The notes under the pieces are model-generated. The model had not been told where the DNA came from and searched no databases. It saw nothing but the letters and a program-made list of their open reading frames with translations. Below are positions 7,873 to 45,761 of a stretch of DNA of 64,000 nt, piece by piece. Every line of letters begins with the position of its first letter. Within the stretch, counting starts at the first letter, position 1. Source of the stretch: Dendrophyllia cribrosa (taxonomy: Eukaryota > Cnidaria > Anthozoa > Scleractinia > Dendrophylliidae); assembly GCA_024195265.1 (NCBI GenBank), contig JAJLRJ010000014.1, positions 14,882,459 to 14,946,458 of the forward strand. The letters run 5' to 3'. The position numbers and the translations under genes are program-made.

Positions 7873-8539
7873 AAGTGGCACCTCCGACGGGACTTCTGGA
7901 TCAAGCAGTAGTCTATCCCAGATGCCTGGGACAATTTTATTCATATATGCAGCAGCCCTGAGTTAATGAGGTTGGCTCGGTCAAACCGGTTTTGAACGGT
8001 TCGGTCGGGAGATAATGAGATGCAAGCCGTATAGGTAAAGGAGGGGTTTAATGACATGCAGGTCGTATGGGTGGAGTCATTAAGGATGCATTAAGAGAGA
8101 AGTGTATGGTACGATGTGTTGGTACGTGTCCACCCAACCAGCCGGGTGGTGGTTTCAATTTAAAGGCAAAAGAACAAAGGACGGGTCATGAACCAATGAG
8201 AACACATTGACGTCATGGTCAAACCAGTTCATACCAGTTGGTCAAGAGGTATATTATTCAAAATGGTCACTCTCTAGAAAAACGAGTCAAACCGGTTTTG
8301 TTCACCCTTGTTAAGTATTCAAAATGACTTATAAATGACACCCAGAAAATGAATACGACACAATATTTGATGTTGTCAAAAATTATTTTATTAAGTAAAC
8401 AAAACACAATGATTACAAACAGTTCTGTTTTGTTACAAAGAGTGTGATGTTTATTTTACAAGCCATCTGCAATTAATTGTCCAAGATTTCTTTAACATTT
8501 TGATTTATCTATTCTGCTAAATTGTCTCTGAAGTGTAGG

Positions 8540-8740
8540 TCATTTGATCTTGTCTTGATTTTTAATCACCACGACATTCGCTTCAGTTTCTGTTGGTTTG
8601 TACACTGGAGGACCAAAGACATCTGTAGGAAATTCATCAGCCCATTGAAAGTACTGACACTTTTCCTTTTGACTGCACATGAAGTATGGTCTTTGACCAA
8701 GCGCGATAAAAACGAATGGCGATTTGGAATATAACTCCAT
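8540..8740 (-). CDS. GRF zinc-finger protein, left-arm copy
   Basis: This is the mirror copy of the gene at 19613-19813 and encodes the same 66 residues. Residues 10-31 or so read FIALGQRPYFMCSQKEKC then QYFQWADE, matching the second half of a GRF zinc finger (G-R-x-F/Y-F-x-C-x6-C-x-[FY]-F-x-W). A C-x-C pair lies in frame upstream of the ATG, so the finger may start before it. Known GRF fingers bind single-stranded nucleic acid in repair and topoisomerase proteins; the role here is inferred only. An AATAAA signal lies downstream (TTTATT on the + strand at 8387-8392). The gene points toward the left end of the element. Confidence 0.6.
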   Translation of the reverse strand: MELYSKSPFVFIALGQRPYFMCSQKEKCQYFQWADEFPTDVFGPPVYKPTETEANVVVIKNQDKIK

Positions 8741-8989
8741 CCCAACTGCATTACAGATACAATGTAAGAAATACTTTGCTTTTTAGTTAAACAAGAAGGA
8801 ATGCTGATAGAGAAACGTAGCGCACTGCAATACGTAGCGCGGGTTTCTTTGACCAGTAAATAGTCTTAAATATCATAAAAACAAAACTCCAAAACTCAAC
8901 TGGACAAGGCGGCAGCGATCAGCTTTAACCGATTGTTTTAGTTGCTCGGTACTTCGATTAGTTAACATTAACGAACATTTCTTTCGAGC

Positions 8990-10075
8990 ATTTGCATTCA
9001 AGTGTGTTCTTGAATATAAATGACTTATAGCTTTTGAAGAAACACTCTTAAGAAACAATAAATGTAATTACCTTTTGTTAACACTCACTCGACCACGAGC
9101 GAAGCGTAATTCAAACTTGAACGTATTGTAATATTAATTGAAGAAACTGATCACATGAAAAGAAAAATCAGACGGTGAAATTGTTTTCAGCAACTGACAT
9201 TTTAAAGCAATGTTTGCTTTTCAAACGCGAAAATACGCTTATCTAGAAAGCAAAATACCGCATAAACTTTTCTTTAAACTTACTGAGCGTCAAACCGAAA
9301 ATATCAGCCCATCTACTATGCTAATGTTCACTGTTAAAAACACAAGTAAATGTGCGCTGCATTGTTTAGCAATTTGTTTTAGTTCTTCGAATTATATTGA
9401 GCGTTAAAGACTTTAAAATTCAAGTCAGAACGAATAGAGATTTTAAATTTAACTCGCAATCCACTGATTCACAGAAATGTCTCACGTTTAAGTCAAACAA
9501 CGGGCGAAGCTATTGGAATTTAGCGCGCTTCAAAGTGTAGAATTCAAGTGTGTTCTTGAACATAAATGAAAAAATAGCTTTTGAAGAAAAACTTTTTAGA
9601 AACAATAAATGTAATTACCTTTTGTTATAACACTCAGTCAACCACGAGCGTAGCGTAATTCAAATTTGAACGTACTGTAATATTAATTGAAGAACTGATC
9701 ACATGAAAAGAAAAATACGGTGAAATTGTTTTCAGCAACTGACATTTTAAAGTAATGTTTGCTTTTCAAACGCAAAAATACGCTTATTTAGAAAGCAAAA
9801 TGCCGCATAAACTTTTCTTTAAACTTACTGAACGTCAAACCGAAGATATCAGCGAATCTACTATGTTTATGTTTAGTTGAAAACGCCAGTAAACTTGCGC
9901 TGAGTTGTTTAGCAATTGTTTTAGTACTTCGAATAATGGTGAGCGTTAAAGACTTTAAAATTCAAGTCAGAACGAATAGAGATTTTAAATTTAACTCGCC
10001 ACCCACTGATTCACAGAAATGTCTCATGTTTAAGTCAAACAACGGGCGAAGCTATTCGAATTTAGCGCGCGACAA
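8990..10075. repeat. Tandem duplication of about 546 bp (left arm)
   Basis: The sequence from ATTCAAGTGTGTTCTTGAA near 8996 recurs from 9542, an offset of 546 bp. The repeated part contains shared blocks such as GTAATTACCTTTTGTTA, GAAATTGTTTTCAGCAACTG and GGGCGAAGCTATT. The same two copies occur in mirror image in the right arm (about 18290-19375). The copies differ by many small changes, so the duplication is older than the copying of the arms. Short open frames inside are not conserved between the two tandem copies and I do not call them genes. Confidence 0.7.
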
Positions 10076-11219
10076 TAATTTACTTTCAAGTCAAAACGAA
10101 TAGAGATTTTAAATTTAAATCACAATCTAATGATTATCGAATTTAGCGCGCGTATAGTCCGAAAGTTTTTGTTTGAGCAAAGCGTATACGCAAGCGTCGC
10201 TTCAAAACATAACGAAAACATGTCGCATGGAATGAAAAAATATAACCTAGTGATATTTTACGTAGAGAAACCTAGCGAGCGCTCTGTTTATTTATCTCTA
10301 TTTGACAACGACCGATACGGCGATTTTCACAAATGAAAATAAACAATCCATTCAGACCATTCATCATACGAAAAGTCTATCTTCGAACTAAAAGCTTTTT
10401 CTGCAGTATGATTAGAAAATCGAAAAACCCAAAACAAAGTTGCATGTCCAAACGAATAACAACAAACAATGTACCCGCTCTATAATTTACCAATATACAC
10501 CGATCACAAGTTTACTTTCGGAGAAAGAAAAGTAACTGGGCTGCGATTCTTTTAAACGGTATAACGAATTAAGGGTCAATTAATGATAACAGTTTTGGAA
10601 CGAAGTAACAATACTTTTCTTAAAGTCAAGGATTGTTTGGATGCGCGGCGCTCATTCGCGTACTAAAGAGAGAAACGACACAAGTTCAATTTCAATTAAC
10701 TTGTCCAAAGGGTAAATGAACTACTTTCATTTGTATTTATTTGCATACTGTCGAAAACATGAGATTGTAATAAGACATCATGTAATGTTTGTGTTAACAT
10801 ATATGAATTAATTTGTTGCTCCGTATTACCTTATGAGTCTTATGACACTAAATGTTTGCGGGTTCTAATCAGTTTTTATGATGCGTTCCTGCCAATTATG
10901 ATTACAGTCAGTAACCATACAGTACTGGGTACGAGTAACATCGTTTTTCATTGATCGTTTAATAGGACTGAAGAGTGCACCCCACGAAAAACTTTCTTTG
11001 TTTTCACAATCGCGACAAGCGTTCGTTATTTAAAACTACTGAAACGATAAACAATAGATTGAAGTAATTCGGGGATTCAAGAGCAATTTACACCGACCCC
11101 TTGGAGTGGCTCATTGTAACTCAAAATAACTCAGAGCATTTGGAGTGAGTGAGAAACTCGTAGCACTTGAGCGAGCAACTAAGAGCATTTGAGTGAGCAA
11201 CTCGGAGCAGTTGAGTGCC

Positions 11220-11998
11220 CTGCCAACTTAGAACAACACAGAGTAACATAAAACAACTCAGAGCAACTCAGAGTATTAACTCAGAGCAACTCAGAACAAC
11301 TCAGAGCAACTCAGAGCAACTCAGAGCAACTCAAAGTATTAACTCAGAGTAACTCAGAGTATTAACTCAGAGCAACTCAGAACAACTCAGAGCAACTCAG
11401 AGCAACTCAAAGTATTAACTCAGAGTAACTCAGAGTATTAACTCAGAGCAACTCAAAGTATTAACTTAGAGCAACTCAGAGTATTAACTTAGAGCAACTC
11501 AGAGTATTAACTCAGAGCAACTCAGAGCAACTCAGAGCAACTCAAAGTATTAACTCAGAGCAACTCAGAGTATTAACTCAGAGCAACTCAGAGTATTAAC
11601 TCAGAGCAACTCAGAGCAACTCAGAGCAACTCAGAGTATTAACTCAGAGCAACTCAGAGCAACTCAGAGCAACTCAAAGTATTAACTCAGAGTAACTCAG
11701 AGTATTAACTCAGAGCATTAACTCAGAGCAACTCAGAGCAACTCAAAGTATTAACTCAGAGCAACTCAGAGTATTAACTTAGAGCAACTCAGAGTATTAA
11801 CTCAGAGCAACTCAAAGTATTAACTCAGAGCAACTCAGAGTATTAACTCAGAGCAACCCAGAGCAACTCAAAGTATTAACTCAGAGTATCTCAGAGTATT
11901 AACTCAGAGCATTAACTCAGAGCAACTCAAAGTATTAACTCAGAGCAACTCAGAGTATTAACTCAGAACAACGCAGAGTATTAACTCAGAGCAACTCA
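11220..11998. repeat. AACTCAGAG satellite, left arm
   Basis: Simple mixed tandem array of the units AACTCAGAGC and AACTCAGAGTATT, about 780 bp long, with variants such as CAAAGTATT and TTAGAGC. It ends sharply at 11998 before unique sequence leading to the arm's poly(A) signal. The right arm has the same array in inverse orientation but longer. Confidence 0.95.
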
Positions 11999-12194
11999 CG
12001 CGATCATGTTATAGGGTCGATAACAGATGCTTCTTGTCGATCTGTGTCTTGTCAGTTTGACATAAGACCAATCACAACAGAGGTCAAAAACAACAATACT
12101 TAATATTTCAAGAATGTCATTTATTATTGACAATTGCAAAATAATACATTACAGAAAATTCACTCGCATTCTAATTCATTTTCCAAGGAATTGA

Positions 12195-12533
12195 TCACGT
12201 ATAAAAACTATCGTAATATTTTCTCTTTCTTGCTGTGTAAGTCAAGTCTTCATCTTCATTCGACGTTTCTTTAGGCAGGTCCTCTTGGTCAAACAGTCTG
12301 TTCAATAAATATTTTCGTGTATTGACTGCTGCTTCAGCGGCCTCCGCATAATCCATGTCACCATCTTGCATAAAGCTATGTAATGTTTTCATGACCTTTT
12401 TATGCAGTGGGTCTGTTCTAAGATCACGATACCACTTAAGATAGTGCAGATACAACCTTCGTAGCCTCTTTCTGTAAACAGGGAGTAAAAGATTGGATGC
12501 TTGAACCTCCGCAACGTCTTGTGGCAAACCCTG
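12195..12533 (-). pseudogene. 3' fragment of the finger/acidic protein gene (left arm)
   Basis: This is the reverse-complement copy of the last 110 or so codons of the gene at 15248-16069, identical in translation from PQDVAEVQASNLLL to the stop. It lacks the zinc finger and acidic region because the inverted repeat begins inside the gene. It lies directly downstream of the Rossmann-like gene (12535-13206), on the same strand but in another frame. It therefore probably serves as the 3' untranslated region of that gene, supplying the poly(A) signal at 12120-12125 (TTTATT on the + strand). Confidence 0.8.
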
Positions 12534-12534
12534 T

Positions 12535-13206
12535 TCAGACGTCTTTGAATCTCAGTCCTTGTAAAGCCTTATCCATTTGTTGGATGTCCTGATCCAAACA
12601 AAAGGTTCTTCGAAAGAGATCTCTTAGTTCTTGCTTAGTATTTTCTCCTATGTAACGGGAACCAATTATGGCACTGGATTTATGTAGGGTTGGATAACCA
12701 TGTAGCGGTTGAAAGCCAAATTCTTTTACCCAACGACCTTCACCATTCCAGCGAAAGAAAAAGGGTTGGTACCAATTCTTACTAGGAATGTCGTAGACAT
12801 ATACCTCTTTGTTTAAATCCAGCGCCAATTGGACAGACAATCCCGTTCCACCATTGACTTGATTTTTTTCTGCATTCAACTCGCCAAATGCATACACGAT
12901 GCGAACATCCTTGACAATAAAAAAGTTTCTTTGAAAGAGTTCTCGCGCGTAACTCTTCTCTGTCATGTTGAATCGTCTATCGAGTGATTTGCAGGCATGA
13001 TGCAAATAAGGGTTCGCTTGGATCAACGTTTCTCTCGGTAACGGTGTGATAGTCTTGGCCCTGAGATGACGTGGCCCTATCTTGACCTCTACTTGAAAAC
13101 CATACTTTCGACCCAATCCTTCCGCCAAAAGATCTAACCCACCGCAACCATCAATGTATAACACATAGCCTGTTCCGATGGGACAGTCCATGGGTTCTTC
13201 CTCCAT
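12535..13206 (-). CDS. Rossmann-like glycine-rich protein, possibly SLOG-type
   Basis: The 223-residue frame starts at ATG 13206 (context AAAGATGG, sequence MEEEPMDCP). An upstream GTG in the same frame was not chosen. Residues 16-23 or so read YIDGCGGLD. A second core segment has a hydrophobic strand VRIVYAFGELNA, then NQVNGGTGLSVQLALDL and the strand KEVYVYDI. The order strand, acidic/polar turn, GGTG loop, helix, strand resembles nucleotide-binding SLOG/LOG/DprA-type folds, in which a GG-x-GT loop holds phosphate. This is a fold guess from pattern only. The gene ends exactly at the edge of the left inverted repeat. It diverges from the 266-residue gene across a duplicated promoter region. 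A TATA-like GATAAATA lies at 13239-13246. I do not recognise it among standard Polinton genes. Confidence 0.65.
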   Translation of the reverse strand: MEEEPMDCPIGTGYVLYIDGCGGLDLLAEGLGRKYGFQVEVKIGPRHLRAKTITPLPRETLIQANPYLHHACKSLDRRFNMTEKSYARELFQRNFFIVKDVRIVYAFGELNAEKNQVNGGTGLSVQLALDLNKEVYVYDIPSKNWYQPFFFRWNGEGRWVKEFGFQPLHGYPTLHKSSAIIGSRYIGENTKQELRDLFRRTFCLDQDIQQMDKALQGLRFKDV

Positions 13207-13766
13207 CTTTGTTGAAAATAAAATGAAACAGCGCACCCTATTTATCTAAACTAAGAACCAATCAGAAGATTGTGCAAACCAGATGAACAACGTCATTTTA
13301 CCACAAAACAGCTAGAAAACCAAGTTTAATCACATACCTCTCATGTCGTTTTCACAAAACTAGTTTGACCACGTCGTCTTGGTTTTGGATTAAAAAAAAT
13401 ATGTGTCAACGTTTTAGCGTCTGATTCAGTGAAGGATAATCATATTCGTGAAGCCTCTCTCAATATGTATGATGTTGCAAGCTACATGTACAGTGCGTTA
13501 TCGTTCGACGAAAACATTCTTCATTTTATCTCAACTAAGAACCAATCAGAACATTGTGCAAACCAGTTTGACTGAATCATCTTACCACAAGACAGCTAGA
13601 GAACCGAATTTAATCAAATATCTTGTCATTTTAACAAAACCAGTTTGACCGCGTCCTCTTATCTTTTTTATCATTGATTGGTCAGATTTTGTAAGGAAAC
13701 GTGATTGCTTCACGTAGAACACATAAGAAGTTAAAGCGACTCTCAATTTGTGGATTCAGTGGAAAG
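13207..13766. promoter_or_regulatory. Divergent promoter region with duplicated CCAAT module
   Basis: Between two divergent genes, a block of about 130 bp occurs twice in direct orientation (about 13252-13385 and 13543-13665). Each copy contains GAACCAATCAGAA (a CCAAT box), a TTGTGCAAACCAG segment, TTACCACAA, CAGCTAGA and TAGTTTGACC or CAGTTTGACC. A further CATTGATTGGTCAG lies at 13670-13686. The TTTGACC/CAAACC motif resembles the CAAACCGGTTTG palindromes near the element tips (8270-8310 and 20050-20140), suggesting a shared recognition motif. Function is inferred from position and repetition. Confidence 0.55.
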
Positions 13767-14567
13767 ATGGAACAGTCCAAAGTTGATCACGCTACGAAGA
13801 GAAAGCCCACTCGTCCAGCCAAGGTTCCCTCAGGAACCAAACCTAAAAAGAGAAAATCAGACAAACATATCGTGAAATGTAGTGAAAGTATTGATACTGT
13901 CTGCGAAGGCAAATGTAAAGGAATCCACTTCAATGAGGATGACGATCCCAACTTTATAGAGATGGTAAAGCAGGGACTTGATTATATACCTTTCAAACTT
14001 GATAACAGTTCAGAAAAAACAGATATCGAAGTCCTCAAAACAGGAGAGATTGCGACTCAAGAAGAAGAACAAGCTCTACACGATTTGTTGCGCGAGCTGA
14101 GGTTCATGAATCAAGCCACCCAGACAGATCCTCTTCCTCCATTTGAAATGCCGCCAGAAGAATTCCATCCTGTGGTGTCTCAAATTGATAGTGAATGCCT
14201 TACACCTAAGCAAAGAGAACAATGTCTTGACAAGGAACTGAAAAAAAGAAATGCTGAACAAGCGACTAAACCCCTCACACTGCATCCGTTTCCACCTCGT
14301 TGGAACCCAAATTTCTTTAATGGGCGTTTAGAAGAAAACATTCAGAAAAGAAATTCTAAAACCGAGGAGGAGCCTGATTCCATTAAATTTGACCGTCCAG
14401 GAGAATACTCCAAGACTGGCAGGCAATACGTTGTCACCGACCGCAACAATACTATCATAACCCCTTCTCAGTTGAAAGGGCATGTTTATGATGATGCGAT
14501 GGTACGCAGTTGGTTGAAAGACCATCCTGATGAAGCCACTTTCAGACCTGGCTGGGTGAACTTTTGA
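13767..14567 (+). CDS. Unknown 266-residue protein of the Polinton-like element
   Basis: The start ATG at 13767 has a good context (AAAGATGG); the frame is open further upstream but without an ATG. The N-terminus is strongly basic and lysine-rich (TKRKPTRPAKVPSGTKPKKR), like a nuclear localisation or nucleic-acid-binding tail. The middle is acidic and proline-rich (PPFEMPPEEFHPV). The C-terminal 70 residues look folded, with YVVTDRNNTIITPSQLKG and SWLKDHPDEATFRPGWVNF. A poly(A) signal variant ATTAAA is at 14651-14656. I recognise no family. Its central place and lack of stops suggest it is maintained; a minor structural or regulatory role is possible but unsupported. Confidence 0.65.
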   Translation: MEQSKVDHATKRKPTRPAKVPSGTKPKKRKSDKHIVKCSESIDTVCEGKCKGIHFNEDDDPNFIEMVKQGLDYIPFKLDNSSEKTDIEVLKTGEIATQEEEQALHDLLRELRFMNQATQTDPLPPFEMPPEEFHPVVSQIDSECLTPKQREQCLDKELKKRNAEQATKPLTLHPFPPRWNPNFFNGRLEENIQKRNSKTEEEPDSIKFDRPGEYSKTGRQYVVTDRNNTIITPSQLKGHVYDDAMVRSWLKDHPDEATFRPGWVNF

Positions 14568-15170
14568 ACAGTATTGACCCATCTGTTGCTTGTTAATAGC
14601 TTTCTTGCATTGTTATTATAAATGTTTGTAAATGTTTTTCAACATTTATTATTAAAGATGCTTGACATACCTTCCATCCTGTGTGATAATATTCATTCAT
14701 TCATTCATTCATTTATTTTGTCATTAACCACATTAAAAATATATATATAATAATAATAATACAATACACTAGGAATTTATAATAACTTAAAAGACGATAG
14801 ACTAGAAATGGGTACGATGGAAATTGATCTTTCATTTTTATTTTGTGGAGACGTCTCTAAACACAACGTTGATTTCCGGAAAACGTTTTCTGTCCTGTAT
14901 CAAGACCATTTGTTATAAAATTAATCTCGTTAAATCGTTAATGGTTAGTTGTAACCATAGGAAATCTATCAGATACGGTTAATAAGATTGTGGCAGTTAT
15001 AGGTTTGACAGCTTTGTCTATTATATTTTTTTCTTGGAACGAGTTGTACTGGTTTTACTTGTTTGGTGTAAGGTTTCACAATTTTTATTTTAGGCTAAGG
15101 TCAAGTACAATTGATCTTGTTTGTAACAAATGAACATACTAAATTAACAAAAACCCCTTTGAGTGACTCA
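14568..15170. other. Spacer inside the Polinton-like element
   Basis: About 600 bp of AT-rich DNA between the 266-residue gene and the TATA box of the next gene. It holds a short CATT tetranucleotide run (near 14692-14712) and a TAATAA run (near 14748). No gene is seen. Confidence 0.6.
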
Positions 15171-15172
15171 GC

Positions 15173-15180
15173 TATATAAA
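15173..15180 (+). promoter_or_regulatory. TATA box of the finger/acidic gene
   Basis: TATATAAA lies 68 bp before the ATG of the finger/acidic gene, at a suitable distance for a short leader. GAGTGACTCA, an AP-1-like palindrome, lies directly upstream (15161-15170). Confidence 0.55.
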
Positions 15181-15247
15181 TGAGTAAGGCGATGTGGCCG
15201 TACTCATTTTACAACAAGTCAACATCGAGTAACCATCGTGGATCAAT

Positions 15248-16069
15248 ATGCATTCTTGTCAATTCTGTGAAAGAGTATTTAGCCGAAAATACAACAGAGA
15301 TAGGCACAAAAGGCAATGTTGTAATAAACGTTCAGAGCAACAACAAGAAGAGATGACCAGCCAGTATAGAATGGGAGAGGATTCTCCAGATACCTGTTAT
15401 GATGGAAACCCATTTGAGGAATATGAAACGGCAATGCGTCGGATGGAGAAAGAAGAACAAGAAGAAGAAGAAGAAGAACAGAAAAATGGTGATGATTCTG
15501 ATGATGACGCTGCTGATGATGATGGTGATGGTGATGATGATGATGATGATGATGATGGTGATGGTGATGGTGATGGTGATGGTGATGGTGATGGTGACGA
15601 AGACGAAGACCAGAAAAGCATAGCTAGTGACGCCGAAAATGATGATACTGATCCTTGGGATAAGTTACGTGAGGAAGTTATTAATGATCTTAGCTCAACC
15701 TGGGAAGAGCAGGTGAAAGAAAACACAATGCAGGGTTTGCCACAAGACGTTGCGGAGGTTCAAGCATCCAATCTTTTACTCCCTGTTTACAGAAAGAGGC
15801 TACGAAGGTTGTATCTGCACTATCTTAAGTGGTATCGTGATCTTAGAACAGACCCACTGCATAAAAAGGTCATGAAAACATTACATAGCTTTATGCAAGA
15901 TGGTGACATGGATTATGCGGAGGCCGCTGAAGCAGCAGTCAATACACGAAAATATTTATTGAACAGACTATTTGACCAAGAGGACCTGCCTAAAGAAACG
16001 TCGAATGAAGATGAAGACTTGACTTACACAGCAAGAAAGAGAAAATATTACGATAGTTTTTATACGTGA
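15248..16069 (+). CDS. Zinc-finger/acidic-repeat protein of the Polinton-like element
   Basis: A 273-residue frame starting at ATG 15248. Residues 4-24 hold one zinc finger of C2HC type (C-x2-C, then H and CC in HKRQCC). Residues about 60-125 are an extreme acidic low-complexity region with alternating Asp/Gly encoded by a GATGGT repeat. The C-terminal 110 residues are a helical, basic-aromatic domain (YRKRLRRLYLHYLKWYRDL, later KYLLNRLF and KRKYYDSFYT). The inner edge of the inverted repeat (15731) cuts the gene just before that domain, so only the C-terminal part is copied in the left arm. An AATAAA signal is at 16139-16144. A nuclear, DNA-binding role is inferred from the finger. I recognise no named family. 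The reading frame is intact. Confidence 0.75.
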   Translation: MHSCQFCERVFSRKYNRDRHKRQCCNKRSEQQQEEMTSQYRMGEDSPDTCYDGNPFEEYETAMRRMEKEEQEEEEEEQKNGDDSDDDAADDDGDGDDDDDDDDGDGDGDGDGDGDGDEDEDQKSIASDAENDDTDPWDKLREEVINDLSSTWEEQVKENTMQGLPQDVAEVQASNLLLPVYRKRLRRLYLHYLKWYRDLRTDPLHKKVMKTLHSFMQDGDMDYAEAAEAAVNTRKYLLNRLFDQEDLPKETSNEDEDLTYTARKRKYYDSFYT

Positions 16070-16262
16070 TCAATTCCTTGGAAAATGAATTAGAATGCGA
16101 GTGAATTTTCTGTAATGTATTATTTTGCAATTGTCAATAATAAATGACATTCTTGAAATATTAAGTATTGTTGTTTTTGACCTCTGTTGTGATTGGTCTT
16201 ATGTCAAACTGACAAGACACAGATCGACAAGAAGCATCTGTTATCGACCCTATAACATGATC

Positions 16263-17110
16263 GCGTGAGTTGCTCTGAGTTAATACTCTGCGTTGTTCTG
16301 AGTTAATACTCTGAGTTGCTCTGAGTTAATACTTTGAGTTGCTCTGAGTTAATGCTCTGAGTTAATACTCTGAGATACTCTGAGTTAATACTTTGAGTTG
16401 CTCTGGGTTGCTCTGAGTTAATACTCTGAGTTGCTCTGAGTTAATACTTTGAGTTGCTCTGAGTTAATACTCTGAGTTGCTCTAAGTTAATACTCTGAGT
16501 TGCTCTGAGTTAATACTTTGAGTTGCTCTGAGTTGCTCTGAGTTAATGCTCTGAGTTAATACTCTGAGTTACTCTGAGTTAATACTTTGAGTTGCTCTGA
16601 GTTGCTCTGAGTTGCTCTGAGTTAATACTCTGAGTTGCTCTGAGTTGCTCTGAGTTGCTCTGAGTTAATACTCTGAGTTGCTCTGAGTTAATACTCTGAG
16701 TTGCTCTGAGTTAATACTTTGAGTTGCTCTGAGTTGCTCTGAGTTGCTCTGAGTTAATACTCTGAGTTGCTCTAAGTTAATACTCTGAGTTGCTCTAAGT
16801 TAATACTTTGAGTTGCTCTGAGTTAATACTCTGAGTTACTCTGAGTTAATACTTTGAGTTGCTCTGAGTTGCTCTGAGTTGTTCTGAGTTGCTCTGAGTT
16901 AATACTCTGAGTTACTCTGAGTTAATACTTTGAGTTGCTCTGAGTTGCTCTGAGTTGTTCTGAGTTGCTCTGAGTTAATACTCTGAGTTACTCTGAGTTA
17001 ATACTTTGAGTTGCTCTGAGTTGCTCTGAGTTGCTCTGAGTTGTTCTGAGTTAATACTCTGAGTTGCTCTGAGTTAATACTCTGAGTTGCTCTGAGTTGT
17101 TTTATGTTAC
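16263..17110. repeat. AACTCAGAG satellite, right arm (inverse)
   Basis: Array of the reverse-complement units GCTCTGAGTT and AATACTCTGAGTT, about 850 bp, mirror of 11220-11998. It is longer by several units than its partner, the expected behaviour of a tandem array. Confidence 0.95.
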
Positions 17111-18289
17111 TCTGTGTTGTTCTAAGTTGGCAGGGCACTCAACTGCTCCGAGTTGCTCACTCAAATGCTCTTAGTTGCTCGCTCAAGTGCTACGAGTTTC
17201 TCACTCACTCCAAATGCTCTGAGTTATTTTGAGTTACAATGAGCCACTCCAAGGGGTCGGTGTAAATTGCTCTTGAATCCCCGAATTACTTCAATCTATT
17301 GTTTATCGTTTCAGTAGTTTTAAATAACGAACGCTTGTCGCGATTGTGAAAACAAAGAAAGTTTTTCGTGGGGTGCACTCTTCAGTCCTATTAAACGATC
17401 AATGAAAAACGATGTTACTCGTACCCAGTACTGTATGGTTACTGACTGTAATCATAATTGGCAGGAACGCATCATAAAAACTGATTAGAACCCGCAAACA
17501 TTTAGTGTCATAAGACTCATAAGGTAATACGGAGCAACAAATTAATTCATATATGTTAACACAAACATTACATGATGTCTTATTACAATCTCATGTTTTC
17601 GACAGTATGCAAATAAATACAAATGAAAGTAGTTCAATTACCCTTTGGACAAGTTAATTGAAATTGAACTTGTGTCGTTTCTCTCTTTAGTACGCGAATG
17701 AGCGCCGCGCATCCAAACAATCCTTGACTTTAAGAAAAGTATTGTTACTTCGTTCCAAAACTGTTATCATTAATTGACCCTTAATTCGTTATACCGTTTA
17801 AAAGAATCGCAGCCCAGTTACTTTTCTTTCTCCGAAAGTAAACTTGTGATCGGTGTATATTGGTAAATTATAGAGCGGGTACATTGTTTGTTGTTATTCG
17901 TTTGGACATGCAACTTTGTTTTGGGTTTTTCGATTTTCTAATCATACTGCAGAAAAAGCTTTTAGTTCGAAGGTAGACTTTTCGTATGATGAATGGTCTG
18001 AATGGATTGTTTATTTTCATTTGTGAAAATCGCCGTATCGGTCGTTGTCAAATAGAGATAAATAAACAGAGCGCTCGCTAGGTTTCTCTACGTAAAATAT
18101 CACTAGGTTATATTTTTTCATTCCATGCGACATGTTTTCGTTATGTTTTGAAGCGACGCTTGCGTATACGCTTTGCTCAAACAAAAACTTTCGGACTATA
18201 CGCGCGCTAAATTCGATAATCATTAGATTGTGATTTAAATTTAAAATCTCTATTCGTTTTGACTTGAAAGTAAATTATTGTCGCGCGCT

Positions 18290-19375
18290 AAATTCGAATA
18301 GCTTCGCCCGTTGTTTGACTTAAACATGAGACATTTCTGTGAATCAGTGGGTGGCGAGTTAAATTTAAAATCTCTATTCGTTCTGACTTGAATTTTAAAG
18401 TCTTTAACGCTCACCATTATTCGAAGTACTAAAACAATTGCTAAACAACTCAGCGCAAGTTTACTGGCGTTTTCAACTAAACATAAACATAGTAGATTCG
18501 CTGATATCTTCGGTTTGACGTTCAGTAAGTTTAAAGAAAAGTTTATGCGGCATTTTGCTTTCTAAATAAGCGTATTTTTGCGTTTGAAAAGCAAACATTA
18601 CTTTAAAATGTCAGTTGCTGAAAACAATTTCACCGTATTTTTCTTTTCATGTGATCAGTTCTTCAATTAATATTACAGTACGTTCAAATTTGAATTACGC
18701 TACGCTCGTGGTTGACTGAGTGTTATAACAAAAGGTAATTACATTTATTGTTTCTAAAAAGTTTTTCTTCAAAAGCTATTTTTTCATTTATGTTCAAGAA
18801 CACACTTGAATTCTACACTTTGAAGCGCGCTAAATTCCAATAGCTTCGCCCGTTGTTTGACTTAAACGTGAGACATTTCTGTGAATCAGTGGATTGCGAG
18901 TTAAATTTAAAATCTCTATTCGTTCTGACTTGAATTTTAAAGTCTTTAACGCTCAATATAATTCGAAGAACTAAAACAAATTGCTAAACAATGCAGCGCA
19001 CATTTACTTGTGTTTTTAACAGTGAACATTAGCATAGTAGATGGGCTGATATTTTCGGTTTGACGCTCAGTAAGTTTAAAGAAAAGTTTATGCGGTATTT
19101 TGCTTTCTAGATAAGCGTATTTTCGCGTTTGAAAAGCAAACATTGCTTTAAAATGTCAGTTGCTGAAAACAATTTCACCGTCTGATTTTTCTTTTCATGT
19201 GATCAGTTTCTTCAATTAATATTACAATACGTTCAAGTTTGAATTACGCTTCGCTCGTGGTCGAGTGAGTGTTAACAAAAGGTAATTACATTTATTGTTT
19301 CTTAAGAGTGTTTCTTCAAAAGCTATAAGTCATTTATATTCAAGAACACACTTGAATGCAAATGCTCGAAAGAAA
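18290..19375. repeat. Tandem duplication of about 546 bp (right arm)
   Basis: Mirror image of the left-arm duplication at 8990-10075, with the same internal differences between tandem copies. This shows that the duplication existed before the arms were made alike. Confidence 0.7.
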
Positions 19376-19612
19376 TGTTCGTTAATGTTAACTAATCGAA
19401 GTACCGAGCAACTAAAACAATCGGTTAAAGCTGATCGCTGCCGCCTTGTCCAGTTGAGTTTTGGAGTTTTGTTTTTATGATATTTAAGACTATTTACTGG
19501 TCAAAGAAACCCGCGCTACGTATTGCAGTGCGCTACGTTTCTCTATCAGCATTCCTTCTTGTTTAACTAAAAAGCAAAGTATTTCTTACATTGTATCTGT
19601 AATGCAGTTGGG

Positions 19613-19813
19613 ATGGAGTTATATTCCAAATCGCCATTCGTTTTTATCGCGCTTGGTCAAAGACCATACTTCATGTGCAGTCAAAAGGAAAAGTGTCAGT
19701 ACTTTCAATGGGCTGATGAATTTCCTACAGATGTCTTTGGTCCTCCAGTGTACAAACCAACAGAAACTGAAGCGAATGTCGTGGTGATTAAAAATCAAGA
19801 CAAGATCAAATGA
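19613..19813 (+). CDS. GRF zinc-finger protein, right-arm copy
   Basis: A 66-residue frame from ATG 19613. The finger reads G-Q-R-P-Y-F-M-C, six residues, C-Q-Y-F-Q-W-A-D, the hallmark second half of a GRF zinc finger. In frame upstream, with no stop until 19568, lies HCICNAVG. Its C-x-C would complete the four zinc ligands, so the true protein may begin in an upstream exon; a possible acceptor AATGCAG sits at 19602-19608. An AATAAA signal lies 148 bp after the stop (19961-19966). The sequence is the same in the left arm. Nucleic-acid binding is inferred from the family. Confidence 0.65.
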   Translation: MELYSKSPFVFIALGQRPYFMCSQKEKCQYFQWADEFPTDVFGPPVYKPTETEANVVVIKNQDKIK

Positions 19814-20498
19814 CCTACACTTCAGAGACAATTTAGCAGAATAGATAAATCAAAATGTTAAAGAAATCTTGGACAATTAATTGCAGATGGCTTGTAAAAT
19901 AAACATCACACTCTTTGTAACAAAACAGAACTGTTTGTAATCATTGTGTTTTGTTTACTTAATAAAATAATTTTTGACAACATCAAATATTGTGTCGTAT
20001 TCATTTTCTGGGTGTCATTTATAAGTCATTTTGAATACTTAACAAGGGTGAACAAAACCGGTTTGACTCGTTTTTCTAGAGAGTGACCATTTTGAATAAT
20101 ATACCCCTTGACCAACTGGTATGAACTGGTTTGACCATGACGTCAATGTGTTCTCATTGGTTCATGACCCGTCCTTTGTTCTTTTGCCTTTAAATTGAAA
20201 CCACCACCCGGCTGGTTGGGTGGACACGTACCAACACATCGTACCATACACTTCTCTCTTAAACACGTTATTAATATTCAATAAAATCTCAGTGTACTTC
20301 TCTCCCAATGCATCCTTAATGACTCCACCCATACGACCTGCATGTCATTAAACCCCTCCTGTACCTATACGGCTTGCATCTCATTATCTCCCGACCGAAC
20401 CGTTCAAAACCGGTTTGACCGAGCCAACCTCATTAACTCATGGCTGCTGCATATATGAATAAAATTGTCCCAGGCATCTGGGATAGACTACTTCAAGC

Positions 20499-24916: not shown

Positions 24917-27900
24917 ATAATTGTAATAAACAATTATAAAGCTAATAATTAATGAAGAAGAAAAGCAAATAATAACATGATAATGGTAATTTCTAGTTAT
25001 GATTGTTTCTTCTTTCAGTTGCTTGAAATATAAAAGTAGCAGTTATCCTGCTAATAAATTGGTCAGTGTTGTTGAAAAGAAAAAACAGTTTTTCGTGTTT
25101 ACTAAAATTTGTAAATAATTTGTTTCGTTCAATAGTCTTTATAAAAAGAGTGTTTCTAAGGTCATTATATAATTTACAATCAAATAAAAAATGCATTTCG
25201 TCTTCAACTGAATTTTGATCACAGTGATTACAAATTCTGAGGTTTTCAGGAGTTTTAGGGATTGTAAATCTTCCATTTTCAATTCTTAAGTTGTGATTTC
25301 CTATCCTGAATTTAGACGTTATTCTTCTATGTTCAGGATTCTTAATATGATTGATGAAATCGGAGTGTTTTGTTTCATTTTTGAAAGTGGAGTAAAATTT
25401 AAGTTTTTTATTTAAATTTATTTGATTGAGTTGATGATTTTTGAGTTTTACTAACAAATTGCTTTTTGCCTTTAATAAGAAAGTAGATGGGTTGATCAAA
25501 TCTATTGATTTCTTGTCAATATTCAGTTGTGTACATAACAGATTAATCCTGTTGATCAAACCAGTTTTGTTTTCTTGAGCCATTTTGTCAGACATGTTTA
25601 AGCAAAGTTTAGCGATACTATCAGGAGGTTGATTTTCAAGATGAATCCAAAATTTAAGAATATTCATTGAAATTTGTAATTTTAAAGATAATCTTCCAAG
25701 TTCATTTCTAGATGCTACATTTGGTGAACGTTTGTTTACCCCTAAACACATCTTACAGAAATAAATATGTGTTTTCTCAATAGGATCCTTTTCCCAGCTG
25801 TTATTATCACATTTGTCATAGATGCCCCACATTTCGGAACAATATGTTAAAATTGGAAGAAATAGTGTATTAAAAAGTTTGTTGTCGACGTTGATTGGTA
25901 GTTGTAAGAAATCAAGATAACGCCGTGTTGCGAAAAAGGATCTTTTAGTTTTTTCTTTCAGTTTTTCTTTATGACAAGTGAAACTTCCATTAGTAGAAAA
26001 ATTCACACCAAGATAAGTGTAATTATCAACAATTTGGATATGTTCATCATTAACAATAAATTTATATTTGTCTGCTATTGTTTTCCTGCTTTTCTTTTGG
26101 AATATACTGAATCACTTTTGTTTTAGATGAATTTATCTTAAGGAGCCAATCTTGACAATACTTTGATAATCTGTCAAGACTTTGTTGTAGTCCTTCTGGA
26201 GAATTGGAAATTAAAAGTAAATCGTCTGCATAGAGTAAACAATTAAGGTGAGAACCATCTGGTAGTATTATAGGATCTTTGGCATTGTTGTTTAAAATGT
26301 ATGGTAATTCATTTAAATAAAGATTAAAAAGTAGCGGAGAGAGAATACAGCCTTGTCTAACTCCTTTCTCATAGTTAAAGAATTCAGATCGATTGTCACC
26401 ATCTTTCACGCAACATTGTGATTGTGAATACATATTAGAAATTACTTTGTAGAAGGTACCACCTATTTTATATTTTAATAATTTATGTAATAAACCTTGG
26501 TGCCAAATTGAGTCAAATGCTTTTTTAAAGTCAACAAAACAAGTATATAGTTTACCTCTGGGGTATGAGTAACATGTTTGTCAATTAAAGTTTTTAAAGT
26601 GAAAATATGGTCGGACGTGCGATGACCCGGTAAAAAGCCGATCTGAGAACGATGTATTATGTTATGTTTGTTTAAGAAATTGTGTAATCTTGCATTAAGA
26701 ATTGAGCAAAAAAGTTTTCCAAGGCAACTACTAATACAAATACCTCTATAATTGGAAGGGTCATCTTTGTTTCCTGATTTATGTAGCGCAGTAATTATAC
26801 CATCACTCCAAGATGTAGGGAATACTCCAGATTTTAATATAAGTGTAAAAAGTTTTGCTAGTGAGGGCCTTATGAATCTTGAGCTCGTTTTTATCATTTC
26901 ATTGCGTATTTTATCAAGACCAGCAGCCTTCTTGTTTTTAAGCCTTTTAATCGCCTTATCGATCTCATCAGTGGATATTGAATCATCTAATTCAGGTTGT
27001 AAGTGCTTGTTGTTCTCTAAACGTTTTATTTCTTCAAGAACATTTAGCTGAAATGTTGATAAGGTGTTATGTTCAGATGCTGAGTGCAGTTTTTTAAAAT
27101 GATCATAGAGTTTTGTAGTCGGGGATTCATTATCACTATTAATTATATTATTCTCATTCATTGACTTTAGTGTATCCCAAAATTTGTGATTGTTTTCATT
27201 GTTAACTAAATCATCAATTTTAGAATCAAAGAATAGTTGCTTTTTACGTTTAAGTAGTTTTTTATAGGTTTTACTTTGGGCATGATATTGCTTTCTTAAT
27301 TCAGTGTCTAGAGGATTGCGATGTTTTTTGTTAGATAATTGTTTAAGAGATTTCCTTAAAGCCTTGCAATCATGATCAAACCATTTCTTAGTTAAATGCT
27401 TTCTTTTAGAATTCCTTTGACAACTTAATTTAAGTGAACATTTTGCCGCTTCATGCATAATATTTGTAAACTGAGTAGTAGCTTGATCAATGCCTGTATT
27501 ATTTAATTCAAAGGTCGAGTCTTCAAAAGTTTGTAACCGAGACAAAATATCAGGAGATTGAAAGGTCTCAGTGAATTTTGTTGCCGAAGTTTCATTCCAG
27601 ATATATTGTTTTGGGAGTTTAATTTTGTTTTGTTCTTGAAATTGATTGTTGTTAATTAGGTTAGATGTACCAATTTTTATCCAGCAGACAAGTTGAGAGT
27701 GGTCTGAAAAAATATTTGGTTGTTTTACGACGAACCCTTCAATTGAAGTAAATAGAGTATGTCCAACAATAATATAATCTACAGTACTTACTCCATTACT
27801 GGAGCCGTGATAAGTGGATTTTCCTAAGGTATCTCCTTTAGTTCGTCCGTTTAAGATCCTTAAATCGCAAGATTTGCAGAGTTCAAGTAACTGTTTTCCA

Positions 27901-28290
27901 TGATCATTAATATTGTTATCAAAGTTCTGTCTATTAGGAAGAGCAGATGGTACAGGAATATTATCTCCAGGTATAAAGTTAGAATTGTCATCGACTATAA
28001 AATCATTTGCTTTGCCTGTTCTTGCATTGAAATCACCAGCTAACATAACAAAACCTTTGTTGTGAAAAAATGCGATATCTGTTTCCATATCAACGAATAA
28101 TTCAGGATCAAAATAAGGAGAATCTCGGGGAGGAATGTAGAGAGCACATAAGTAAATATCTTGTTCAAAGCTAAAAAAGCTGTGATTTAGTTTACACCAA
28201 ATGTAATTAGTGCTCGATTTAACTAAAGAGATACCATTTTCTAAATGTTTTTTATAGGCTAGAACAAGACCTCCCGAAAGTCATTTTCCT
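24917..28290 (-). pseudogene. 5'-truncated LINE with endonuclease and reverse transcriptase
   Basis: On the - strand the frame starts near 28283 inside the apurinic-type endonuclease (SGGLVLAYKKH) and includes LAGDFNARTG and SDHSQLVCW, both endonuclease signature segments. RT follows: SNYRGICISSCLGKLFC and IGFLPGHRTSDHIFTLK. After a frameshift near 26470 come GVRQGCILSPLLFNLYLNEL and LLYADDLLLIS with an intact YADD. A second shift near 26060 leads to a C-terminal part with a CCHC-like knuckle (CNHCDQN...HFLFDC) ending at 24993. It is cut at its 5' end by the G-rich foldback. The clade is not resolved. It lies antisense to the BEL element it interrupts, and its two frameshifts make it inactive. 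Confidence 0.85.
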
Positions 28291-31520: not shown

Positions 31521-33879
31521 TGTTGGGACTTGGTTGGGCCGGATAAAGGAAGAGATGAACTGAGCGTGAAATTTCCAATTGAAGACGTCCAGCCAAAGAA
31601 GTGTCAGTACCAAAGTCAATTACAAGTGTCACAAGCTTTCAAGAACCCTTACAAGATATCGAGCTGCACAGCATTGGTGACGGGAGTAAGCTAGGAGTAG
31701 GCACCACAGTCTACGTAGTGGTGAAACAAGCGTCGGGAACAACGCAACGACTAGTAGCCGCTAAGGCGCGCCTAGCAAAGGAAGGCCTCTCCATACCCCG
31801 CCTTGAACTGGTTGCTGGCCATATGGCGACAAACTTGCTGACGAATGTGAGAGAAGCTATGGAGGGATTACATATCTCGAACGTATACGGGTGGTTGTAC
31901 AGCACCGTTGCCCTGCATTGGATACGGGGAGGAGGAGAGTACAAGCTGTTCGTCCAGAACAGGGTAGCAAAGATAAGGGCACATGCAGACATAGAGTGGC
32001 GGTACCCAGCCGACCTAGCTACCCGAGGGGGTCCGTGAGTGGATCATCGCTTTGGTGGAATGGACCTACGGTGGTTAGCTAACGGATAAGAGTGGCCACA
32101 CAACCTAGTAACCTCGGCCTCCCCAGTGACAGAAGTCGAAGCCAAAACCATGCGAAAAGTTTTATCAGTTGCACAGCCTACAACGTCAAGTGAGCCATTT
32201 GAAGAACTGCTAGAGAAGCATGAGCTCAGACGCGCATTGAGGAGTGTTGCATGGGTCAACAGGTTTATAGCCAATTGCAAGACACCCAAAAGATTGTCAG
32301 GTCCATTAACAGCTGAAGAGTTAGAGAGTGTGAAATTGCAGCGGATCAGACGTGTGCAACAAAAAGCCATGAAGGAGACAAACTATCAACAAATCAAGAG
32401 CAGCTTAAACCTGCAACTAAATGATGACGGGCTTCTGGATTGCCGAAGGCGTATTCAGGGCAAATACCCCATTTACCTACCAGAAGACGCCGTGTTTACC
32501 AAGAAGCTAGTACGACGGGTGCACTGCGAGACGCTACACGGGGTAGTGGGCCTAACGATGGTTGCAGTCCGAGAGAAGTACTGGGTCCAACGATTGCTAC
32601 GCCTAGTGAAGAAAGTGACGAAGGAGTGCTGGGGATGTAAGAGATTCCAGGCATCAGCAATTGCGGCCAGCAATTGCAGCACCCCCTCCCGGTCTTCTGC
32701 CAACAGATCGGACCGAAGGGACCACAGCGTTTGAAGTCGTTGACGTTGATTTTGCCGGTCCCATCCGCTACCGCAAGGGATATCGAGAAGGAAAAGTGTA
32801 CATCGCCCTGTTTCCCTGCCGTTTAACGCGGTATTGCCAAGCCTAGAAACGGAGAAGTTCATACCATGCCTGAAGCGGTTTATTGCAAGACGGGGCCGAC
32901 CGATCGAAGACGCTATACTTGGACAACGGGCGAACCTTTATCAAAGTAGCTAAGTGGTTGAAGACGAGAAGGTGCAGGTGCAGGGATACCTTGAGCAAGA
33001 AGAGATCAAGTGGAAATTCAACCTTCCCCGAGGTACCCGAGCACCATGGTGGGGAGGGCAATTCGAACGCCTCATCGGTGTAGTGAAACGAGCTTTTCAA
33101 CAAGACCATCGGAGCAGCAACGTTGACCTGGGATGAGCTGAACGACGTCATACTGGACGTAGAAGTCCAGATTAACCGTCGCCCGCTGAACTATGTGGAA
33201 GATGACGTCGAATTCCTACATTGACGCCATCAGCATTCTTATTCCAGCGCTCAAACCTGTTGCCAGAACAAGAGCCTTGGAGGGAGGAGACACTGGACTT
33301 GAGAAAGCGTGAAAAATATCTCAAGTCCAGCAAAGATCAGCTCTGGCGTTGCTGGACAAGAGAGTACTTGACGGCTCTGCGGGAGAGACAACTTAAACCA
33401 CAAGCAGAAGAACTTCCAGGTAGCAGTGGGAGATGTTGTCTTCATTAGAGCTGATCATGACGAGAAGAATCGTTACAAGTGGCCAATGGGCATGGTGAGA
33501 CAACTGCACCCGGGACGTCGGGGTGCGAGCAGTACAAGTGGACAAGGGCAAAAGACAGCTTGACAGGCCTATACTCTGTATCCTCTGGAGCTGAGCTGTG
33601 ACAGAGAGATACCTTGTCCACCTACACTGAACCCAAAGCAGACGTTTTCCGCCCACGTCGAGCAGCCGCAGCCGTGGCCACAAACGGAATTAGAGCTGCC
33701 GCTCTGCATGAAGAGTTGGACTCTGAGATTTTTTGTTTCTTAAGTTGAACATTGACATTATTAATTTCACGATGAGATTCAATCAGGATTTCAATCAAGC
33801 ATTGTCGAGATGATAGTTTCAATGGTATTTAGATTTCCTTTAGAACATATACCTCCGAGGGGCCTATATGGGGGGAGAG
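31521..33879 (+). pseudogene. BEL/Pao RNase H and integrase, decayed
   Basis: RNase H-region motifs come first (31601-32038): SIGDGSKLGVGTTVYVV, LVAAKARLAKEGLSIPRLEL and YGWLYSTVALHWIRGGG. The integrase zinc-binding part follows (32126-32650) with VHCETLHG and KECWGCKRFQ. The catalytic core lies at 32700-33110 in shifting frames: VVDVDFAGPI, YLDNGRTF and APWWGGQFERLIG, giving the D, D and E positions. The end reads VQINRRPLNYVEDD then TPSAFLFQRSNLLP (to about 33450). At least three frameshifts and several stops make it inactive. A purine run GGGGGGAGAG just before 33880 is the polypurine tract. Confidence 0.85.

Positions 33880-37435: not shown

Positions 37436-45761
<8,326 letters not shown>

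What the first reader, a model, noticed from the sequence alone, without database searches (positions are those of the whole stretch)
7907..20492. A Polinton-like element with novel cargo and no core Polinton genes
The ends AGT...ACT, a perfect 6 bp duplication TCAAGC and multi-kilobase inverted repeats are seen directly and together match Polintons/Mavericks. Yet the 12.6 kb holds none of the hallmark genes I could recognise. It has four other apparently intact proteins: C2HC finger plus acidic repeat, Rossmann-like, an unknown of 266 residues, and GRF zinc finger. This could be an undescribed family of Polinton satellites that borrow polymerase, integrase and capsid from a helper.
Basis: partly seen in the sequence, partly recalled or inferred. 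Interest (0 to 1): 0.88.

Follow-up and report, generated by a model that had tools for sequence, protein, structure and literature searches.

The report
Mirror-image Polinton satellites in a coral
This is a mirror-image mobile DNA element that has the ends of a Polinton (a virus-like transposon) but none of its machinery; the same genome holds complete-looking Polintons with similar ends and families of mirror-image elements carrying related small genes, so it looks like a parasite of Polintons rather than a single broken copy.

Summary
In detail: 7907-20492 has AGTAGT...ACTACT tips, 4.6-kb inverted arms (8 differences in 4,627 columns), a perfect 6-bp duplication and none of the core genes of its relatives. 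The 'GRF protein' is a broken remnant. The host genome (probably a stony coral) holds seven large siblings with related tips that encode pPolB and integrase and, named only by weak matches, capsid, protease and ATPase. In the parts read they lack the window's three genes. Those genes recur in other mirror-image elements: the window's fold-back junction is found at two more loci about 5.5% diverged, and neighbouring P0003 genes within 6 kb are divergent in 30 of 30 cases. A second, very young palindromic family has a P0001 relative in both arms and, in the one element read, integrase but no polymerase. Best reading: a fold-back lineage of non-autonomous Polintons, copied by protein-primed replication and integrated in trans, with two genes showing purifying selection. 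Trans-mobilisation is inferred. The genome-wide polymerase search never ran, so an unread autonomous parent carrying these genes is not excluded.

The parts
7901..7906 (.). target site duplication TCAAGC, left
20493..20498 (.). target site duplication TCAAGC, right
7907..12533 (+). left arm of the palindrome (inverted copy of the right end)
   Evidence: 8 substitutions in 4,627 columns
15731..20492 (+). right arm of the palindrome
12534..15730 (.). unique centre; its left edge is the fold-back junction shared with C21:14.589 Mb and C1:14.904 Mb
12535..13206 (-). P0001, 223 aa; relatives give weak SLOG-superfamily signals, the window's own protein gives no Pfam hit
13767..14567 (+). P0002, 266 aa, basic N-terminus, no Pfam match
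15248..16069 (+). P0003, 273 aa, N-terminal C2HC finger (Pfam zf-C2H2 0.12, below cut-off), acidic repeat, conserved C-terminal domain
12195..12533 (-). truncated copy of P0003 (residues 162-273) in the left arm
8459..8692 (-). GRF zinc finger remnant (residues 131-207 of 207, 2 stops), left arm
19661..19894 (+). GRF zinc finger remnant, right arm
11224..11998 (.). tandem array (10/23-bp units), left arm
16266..17129 (.). tandem array (10/23-bp units), right arm
18219..20492 (+). right-end region shared with four large siblings that encode polymerase and integrase (a fifth shares 20046-20492 only)

Best explanation
The element is a non-autonomous, palindromic relative of Polintons/Mavericks and belongs to a replicating lineage of such palindromes. 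Shown: Polinton-type ends, 6-bp duplications, co-resident siblings with related tips that carry polymerase and integrase, several different fold-back structures, recurrence of one fold-back junction at three loci, arms far more alike than the lineage's age allows, and dN/dS below 0.5 for P0001 and P0003. Inferred: during strand-displacement copying by the protein-primed polymerase the growing strand folded back and copied itself, so one end replaced the other, core-gene end; the product still has two tips, so a helper's polymerase can copy it and a helper's integrase can insert it; pairing of the arms (panhandle) at each copying round makes them identical again. P0003 (finger plus acidic stretch) is probably a DNA-binding regulator and P0001 a SLOG-type nucleotide- or ligand-binding protein. 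A role against helper or host is a guess.
For: Tips and perfect 6-bp duplications in 10 of 10 family-1 elements with both tips read and 6 of 6 family-2 elements with both tips found. A sibling's polymerase (PF03175, 1.6e-46) and integrase (rve 4.8e-12, Chromo 4.4e-06) are firm; both give hits in all seven siblings. Four further palindromes of 9.2, 7.3, 6.8 and 4.9 kb, each with a different centre. Same junction in window, L030 and L031 with star-like distances 61/1117, 55/1000 and 58/1025, which puts the window branch at about 2.6%; arms that had evolved apart should differ by at least about 5%, but differ by 8/4627. P0003 neighbours under 6 kb: 30 divergent, 0 convergent, 0 same-strand, from all 143 rows merged to 130 genes; spacer exactly 486 bp at five loci. 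P0001: 16 divergent, 0 convergent, 0 same-strand, from the 51 best of 96 rows. dN/dS: P0001 0.24 and 0.40; P0003 0.25 and 0.43 (C-terminal half 0.10 and 0.20); P0002 0.55.
Against: Helper action in trans was not observed. The genome-wide polymerase search was asked 13 times and never answered (and later), so an autonomous Polinton carrying P0001-P0003 may exist; the P0002 search did not complete either. Of the seven siblings two were read only in part: C22:6.39 Mb lacks its outer 3.5 kb, C18:11.85 Mb was read for its first 9.8 kb only. Capsid, protease and ATPase of the siblings are named by sub-threshold Pfam hits (0.04, 0.0014, 0.0011), and PDB and PHROGs give nothing for them (capsid; the others). 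Of five dN/dS partner copies four are broken, and the counts are small. Seventy of 130 P0003 genes are not in a close pair. Ends of the P0003 divergent-pair elements were not read, the window apart, and the eight close ones do not lie at family-1 tips. L030 and L031 were read only locally, and the C21 element has the P0003 fragment and P0001 in both arms, so it is not the window's twin. Among the loci held P0002 occurs in only one other element, broken there.
Confidence: 0.7

Rival explanations
1. Fold-back derivatives of an unread autonomous Polinton lineage that itself carries P0001-P0003: defective-interfering-like genomes that arise repeatedly, not a satellite with genes of its own.
For: The one family-2 element read carries a P0001 relative together with integrase and capsid-type genes; different fold-back points in different elements; 70 of 130 P0003 genes are not in a close pair, and nearly all their contexts were not read.
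Against: The seven large siblings lack all three genes in the parts read, five of them read completely; fold-back forms are themselves multiplied (same junction at 3 loci; 486-bp spacer at 5 loci).
Confidence: 0.3
2. A single deletion derivative of a sibling Polinton with no family of its own.
For: Shares tips and the right end with siblings that carry the core genes. L024 is a 3.8-kb internally deleted copy, so deletion derivatives exist here.
Against: Payload not found in the siblings in the parts read, junction shared by three loci, 30 divergent P0003 pairs.
Confidence: 0.05
3. Assembly artefact: fold-back reads assembled as palindromes.
For: Fold-back chimaeras are a known long-read artefact (recalled).
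Against: The window's arms differ at 8 sites, palindromes with both tips read have their own 6-bp duplications, and the junction recurs on different contigs.
Confidence: 0.03
4. Arms kept alike by ordinary gene conversion in the chromosome, not by copying at transposition.
For: Long inverted repeats convert (recalled).
Against: Not excluded by any search. In L018 and L019 the arms are only about 94-98% and 96.4% alike over their longer stretches, so conversion in place is not keeping up there.
Confidence: 0.2

Closest known systems
Polinton/Maverick elements (autonomous)
   Same: (AGT)2//(ACT)2 ends and perfect 6-bp duplications, as stated for vertebrate Mavericks in PMC8097293 (passages seen); siblings in this genome with related tips encode polymerase and integrase and, by weaker evidence, the rest of the core set.
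   Different: This element has none of the siblings' core genes; its arms are 4.6 kb and made of one end only.
Palindromic defective genomes of protein-primed linear replicons such as adenovirus (recalled, not tested)
   Same: One end of the genome replaced by an inverted copy of the other; both origins kept.
   Different: Here the palindromes are integrated with target duplications, and at least some fold-back forms recur at several loci with open genes.
Virophages and satellite viruses (recalled; PMC11172284 seen in listings and abstract starts only)
   Same: Proposed dependence on a relative's replication machinery.
   Different: No capsid gene found in the window element; no particle or helper dependence shown.
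Teratorn (PMC6431247, passages seen)
   Same: A large virus-derived mobile element with long inverted repeats.

Membership tests
Polinton/Maverick (autonomous) | AGT-type tips in inverted orientation | tested here: met
Polinton/Maverick (autonomous) | 6-bp target site duplication | tested here: met
   TCAAGC in the window; 10 of 10 family-1 elements judged
Polinton/Maverick (autonomous) | protein-primed DNA polymerase B | tested here: not met
   no tblastn hit in the window, hits in seven siblings
Polinton/Maverick (autonomous) | retroviral-type integrase | tested here: not met
Polinton/Maverick (autonomous) | capsid proteins, protease, packaging ATPase | tested here: not met
   no tblastn hit of the siblings' proteins; those proteins themselves are named by sub-threshold Pfam hits
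Non-autonomous Polinton relative | shares ends with a co-resident element carrying the core genes | tested here: met
   18219-20492 shared in pieces at about 76-94% identity with four siblings, 20046-20492 with a fifth
Non-autonomous Polinton relative | moved in trans by that element | not testable with these tools
   inferred from tips and duplications only
Satellite with its own genes | non-autonomous form itself multiplies | tested here: met
   same junction at 3 loci; 486-bp spacer at 5 loci; ends of these other copies not read
Satellite with its own genes | genes absent from the helper and under selection | tested here: inconclusive
   absent from seven siblings in the parts read; dN/dS below 0.5 for P0001 and P0003, small counts; genome-wide pPolB search not answered
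SLOG superfamily (P0001) | match above a Pfam curated cut-off | tested here: not met
   window protein: 0 families; alignment members only sub-threshold: YAcAr in 4 of 5, cpYpsA best 0.0077, DNA_processg_A best 0.021, LDcluster4 0.23; two Kelch models are hit as well
SLOG superfamily (P0001) | Rossmann-type fold with the SLOG ligand site | not tested

The most novel reading that the evidence does not exclude
Corals host a long-lived lineage of palindromic Polinton satellites. They are marked by P0003 (several subfamilies, down to under 30% identity, often encoded once per arm) and by a SLOG-like protein, depend on Polintons for the polymerase and often for everything else, are re-made symmetrical at every copying round, and have lately thrown up a polymerase-less, integrase- and capsid-bearing form that has burst through the genome.
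Probability: 0.4. Interest if true: 0.85.

Novelty: new variant of a known kind. Interest (0 to 1): 0.7.

Why it matters
Whether Polintons live as viruses with parasites of their own is open (my knowledge of the field). A replicating family of symmetrical, gene-bearing, machinery-less elements with matching tips would be a fossil record of interference between Polinton genomes. If arms are re-copied at each transposition, the divergence between arms dates each insertion, as with retroviral LTRs. It also gives a direct prediction: symmetrical linear DNA with protein-bound ends in coral tissue.

Tried and rejected
Viral contigs: five scans, with P0001, P0005, alignments A1 and A3 and the family-2 capsid-type protein, found no relatives. 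PDB searches gave nothing convincing for P0001, P0003 or a sibling's capsid-type protein; PHROGs gave nothing for four sibling proteins. Structure prediction did not answer and was then switched off. Literature searches showed no description of such elements: six exact phrases such as 'non-autonomous Polinton', 0 papers; listings and starts of abstracts only, up to 20 papers shown each. Passages were seen in PMC6431247, PMC4028283 and PMC8097293. Paywalled work, including Kapitonov and Jurka 2006, was not seen. A first comparison of family-2 arms gave 6% or more because the loci ran past the arms into unlike sequence; it was redone on a 2.1-kb stretch. The first count of P0003 pairs used 108 of 143 rows and gave 32 divergent, 0 convergent and 2 same-strand before merging of split rows; the reported count uses all 143, merged at under 500 bp, next neighbours only. 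The P0001 count uses the 51 best of 96 rows; the other 45 were not typed in.
Full report
What is there. The element runs from 7907 to 20492 (12,586 bp) between two perfect copies of TCAAGC, with tips AGTAGTCTATCCCAG... in inverted orientation. It is a palindrome: the arms 7907-12533 and 15731-20492 differ at 8 of 4,627 aligned columns, with 135 gap columns. The unique centre, 12534-15730, holds P0001 (223 aa, minus strand), P0002 (266 aa) and the start of P0003 (273 aa). The left arm ends inside P0003, so residues 162-273 of P0003 lie again in the left arm.

Siblings. The window lies in a 627-Mb genome of 22 contigs. The host is probably a stony coral: two of the 53 P0003 relatives carry a host name, Montipora foliosa and Oculina patagonica. 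A tip pattern finds 80 sites against 0 for the reversed control, with 19 inward-facing neighbouring pairs under 25 kb against 0 outward-facing ones. Twenty pieces of siblings were fetched. Seven large siblings give hits to the polymerase, integrase, capsid-type, protease-type and ATPase-type proteins of one of them: C3:17.24, C20:8.35, C22:26.26, C17:8.11 and C22:24.40 Mb read completely, C22:6.39 Mb without its outer 3.5 kb, and C18:11.85 Mb for its first 9.8 kb. Pfam is firm for the polymerase (PF03175, 1.6e-46) and the integrase (rve 4.8e-12, Chromo 4.4e-06); the protease (Peptidase_C5 0.0014), the ATPase (AAA_16 0.0011) and the capsid protein (Capsid_N 0.04) are below cut-off, and neither PDB (capsid only) nor PHROGs adds anything. 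Their names therefore rest on weak matches, size and gene order. In the parts read none of the seven has P0001, P0002 or P0003. The C17 copy is degraded. All 10 family-1 elements with both tips read, the window included, have a perfect 6-bp duplication. C17:8.11, C22:6.39 and C18:11.85 Mb could not be judged because one or both tips were not read or not recognised.

Other palindromes with the same tips. L018 (9.2 kb), L019 (7.3 kb), L020 (6.8 kb) and L021 (4.9 kb) have both arms made of the window's right-end sequence, and each has a different centre. Arm identity is 99.6% (L020), 99.5% (L021), 96.4% (L019) and about 94-98% over the longer stretches of L018. Right ends of six large siblings were compared with the window: four match only from about 18219 outward, one (C22:24.40) only from 20046, and one (C22:6.39, outer part unread) not at all. 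The stretch 13756-18219 (P0002, P0003, tandem array) is found, whole or in part, only in the palindromes among the loci compared.

The palindromic form is copied. At C21:14.589 Mb (L030) and C1:14.904 Mb (L031) P0003 sequence meets P0001 at the same place as in the window (L031 has a one-base difference beside it). Distances are 61/1117, 55/1000 and 58/1025, nearly a star, so the window's own branch is about 2.6%. Arms that had evolved separately since the fold-back should differ by at least about 5%; they differ by 0.17%. So the arms were made alike again after the fold-back, by copying at transposition (my preference) or by gene conversion. Caveat: L030 and L031 were read only locally, and at C21:14.59 Mb both the P0003 fragment and P0001 occur in both arms, so that element is a relative, not a twin.

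P0003 and P0001 across the genome. P0003 has 143 matches, 130 after merging split rows; of the 30 full-length rows at the top of the list 26 have no stop. The tool scores only its best candidates (141 of 213), so these are lower bounds. Neighbours closer than 6 kb are divergent in 30 of 30 cases, the window's own pair among them; 70 of the 130 genes are not in such a pair. The spacer is exactly 486 bp at five loci, 492 at one and 288 at two. Fifteen of the 30 pairs are distant relatives (about 23-39% identity), 14 of these with spacers of 2.3-3.3 kb. Ends of the pair elements were not read, the window apart, and the eight close pairs are not at family-1 tips. P0001 has 96 matches; among the best 51, 16 of 16 neighbouring pairs under 15 kb are divergent, 12 of them 10.2-10.4 kb apart.

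Family 2. Of those 12 pairs, the six in which both tips were found have tips AGTAGTCTTATCGGCCC and a perfect 6-bp duplication, 6 of 6; in a seventh (L044/L047) no tip lay within the loci. One element, C19:19689361-19703288 (13.9 kb), was read completely in three pieces: a P0001 relative in both arms, an open frame for a basic 200-aa protein read in the right arm, integrase, capsid-, protease- and ATPase-type genes in the centre, and no pPolB, although its other core genes match family 1 at about 60-85%. The P0001 relative is open in 17 of 17 loci compared (the best-scoring ones; some lower rows have stops) and shows 0-2 differences in 714 bases from the reference copy in each of the 16 others. 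On a 2.1-kb stretch arms differ by 0.05-0.33% within seven elements, and copies by a median of 0.29%. This is a very recent burst. That the other copies also lack pPolB is inferred from their spacing.

Genes. The window's P0001 has no Pfam match; its five-member alignment hits six Pfam families below cut-off, four of them SLOG-type (that DNA_processg_A belongs there is recalled) and two Kelch. P0003 has a C2HC finger (Pfam 0.12, below cut-off), an acidic stretch and a conserved C-terminal domain found in 53 database proteins; one is labelled 'SDA1 homolog', which the alignment gives no reason to believe. P0002 has three relatives that share mainly its N-terminal part. dN/dS: P0001 0.24 and 0.40, P0003 0.25 and 0.43 (C-terminal half 0.10 and 0.20), P0002 0.55. 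Counts are small, and four of the five partner copies are broken; the P0003 copy in L018 is open.

Mechanism. A protein-primed polymerase starts at the tips and displaces one strand (established for this polymerase class; recalled). If the new strand folds back and copies itself, the result is a molecule with the same end twice. It keeps both origins and both integrase sites, so a helper can copy and insert it. Displaced single strands of such molecules are self-complementary, which would make the arms alike again. All steps after the anatomy are inference.

Comparison. Membership as an autonomous Polinton fails on polymerase, integrase and the other core genes. As a non-autonomous relative it meets ends, duplication and shared right end; movement in trans is untested. 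PMC8097293 (passages) gives the same end motif and 6-bp duplication for vertebrate Mavericks. I saw no paper on non-autonomous or palindromic Polintons in the listings, in an open-access library only; PMC4028283 (passage) mentions an earlier idea that Tlr elements are non-autonomous Polinton derivatives and argues against it.

Open. The genome-wide pPolB search did not complete, so an autonomous parent carrying the three genes may exist. This is the main doubt about the satellite reading.

Noticed in passing
L033, L049, L034 (G000 C19:19689361-19703288): Very young palindromic Polinton family: the element read has integrase and a capsid-type gene but no pPolB, and a P0001 relative in both arms; 6 of 6 pairs with both tips found have perfect 6-bp duplications.
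   Followed up: partly
L024:5915-9731: 3.8-kb internally deleted Polinton with both tips and duplication AATAAC; keeps the ATPase-type and left-end genes, some with stops.
   Followed up: no
G000 C19:7144972-7171189: Four family-1 tips in the same orientation within 26 kb, possibly nested or tandem insertions.
   Followed up: no
window 38680-39321: Armadillo/beta-catenin-like open frame on the minus strand (Pfam Arm 4.7e-06): probably an exon of a host gene near the insertion.
   Followed up: partly
window 24993-28280: Non-LTR retrotransposon remains on the minus strand (RVT_1 8.6e-05, below cut-off).
   Followed up: partly
window 31583-32734: Remains of a retroelement polyprotein with an integrase zinc-binding domain (Integrase_H2C2 1.5e-06).
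   Followed up: partly
P0014: A P0003 relative is named 'protein SDA1 homolog' in Montipora foliosa; probably a mislabel of a mobile-element gene.
   Followed up: no
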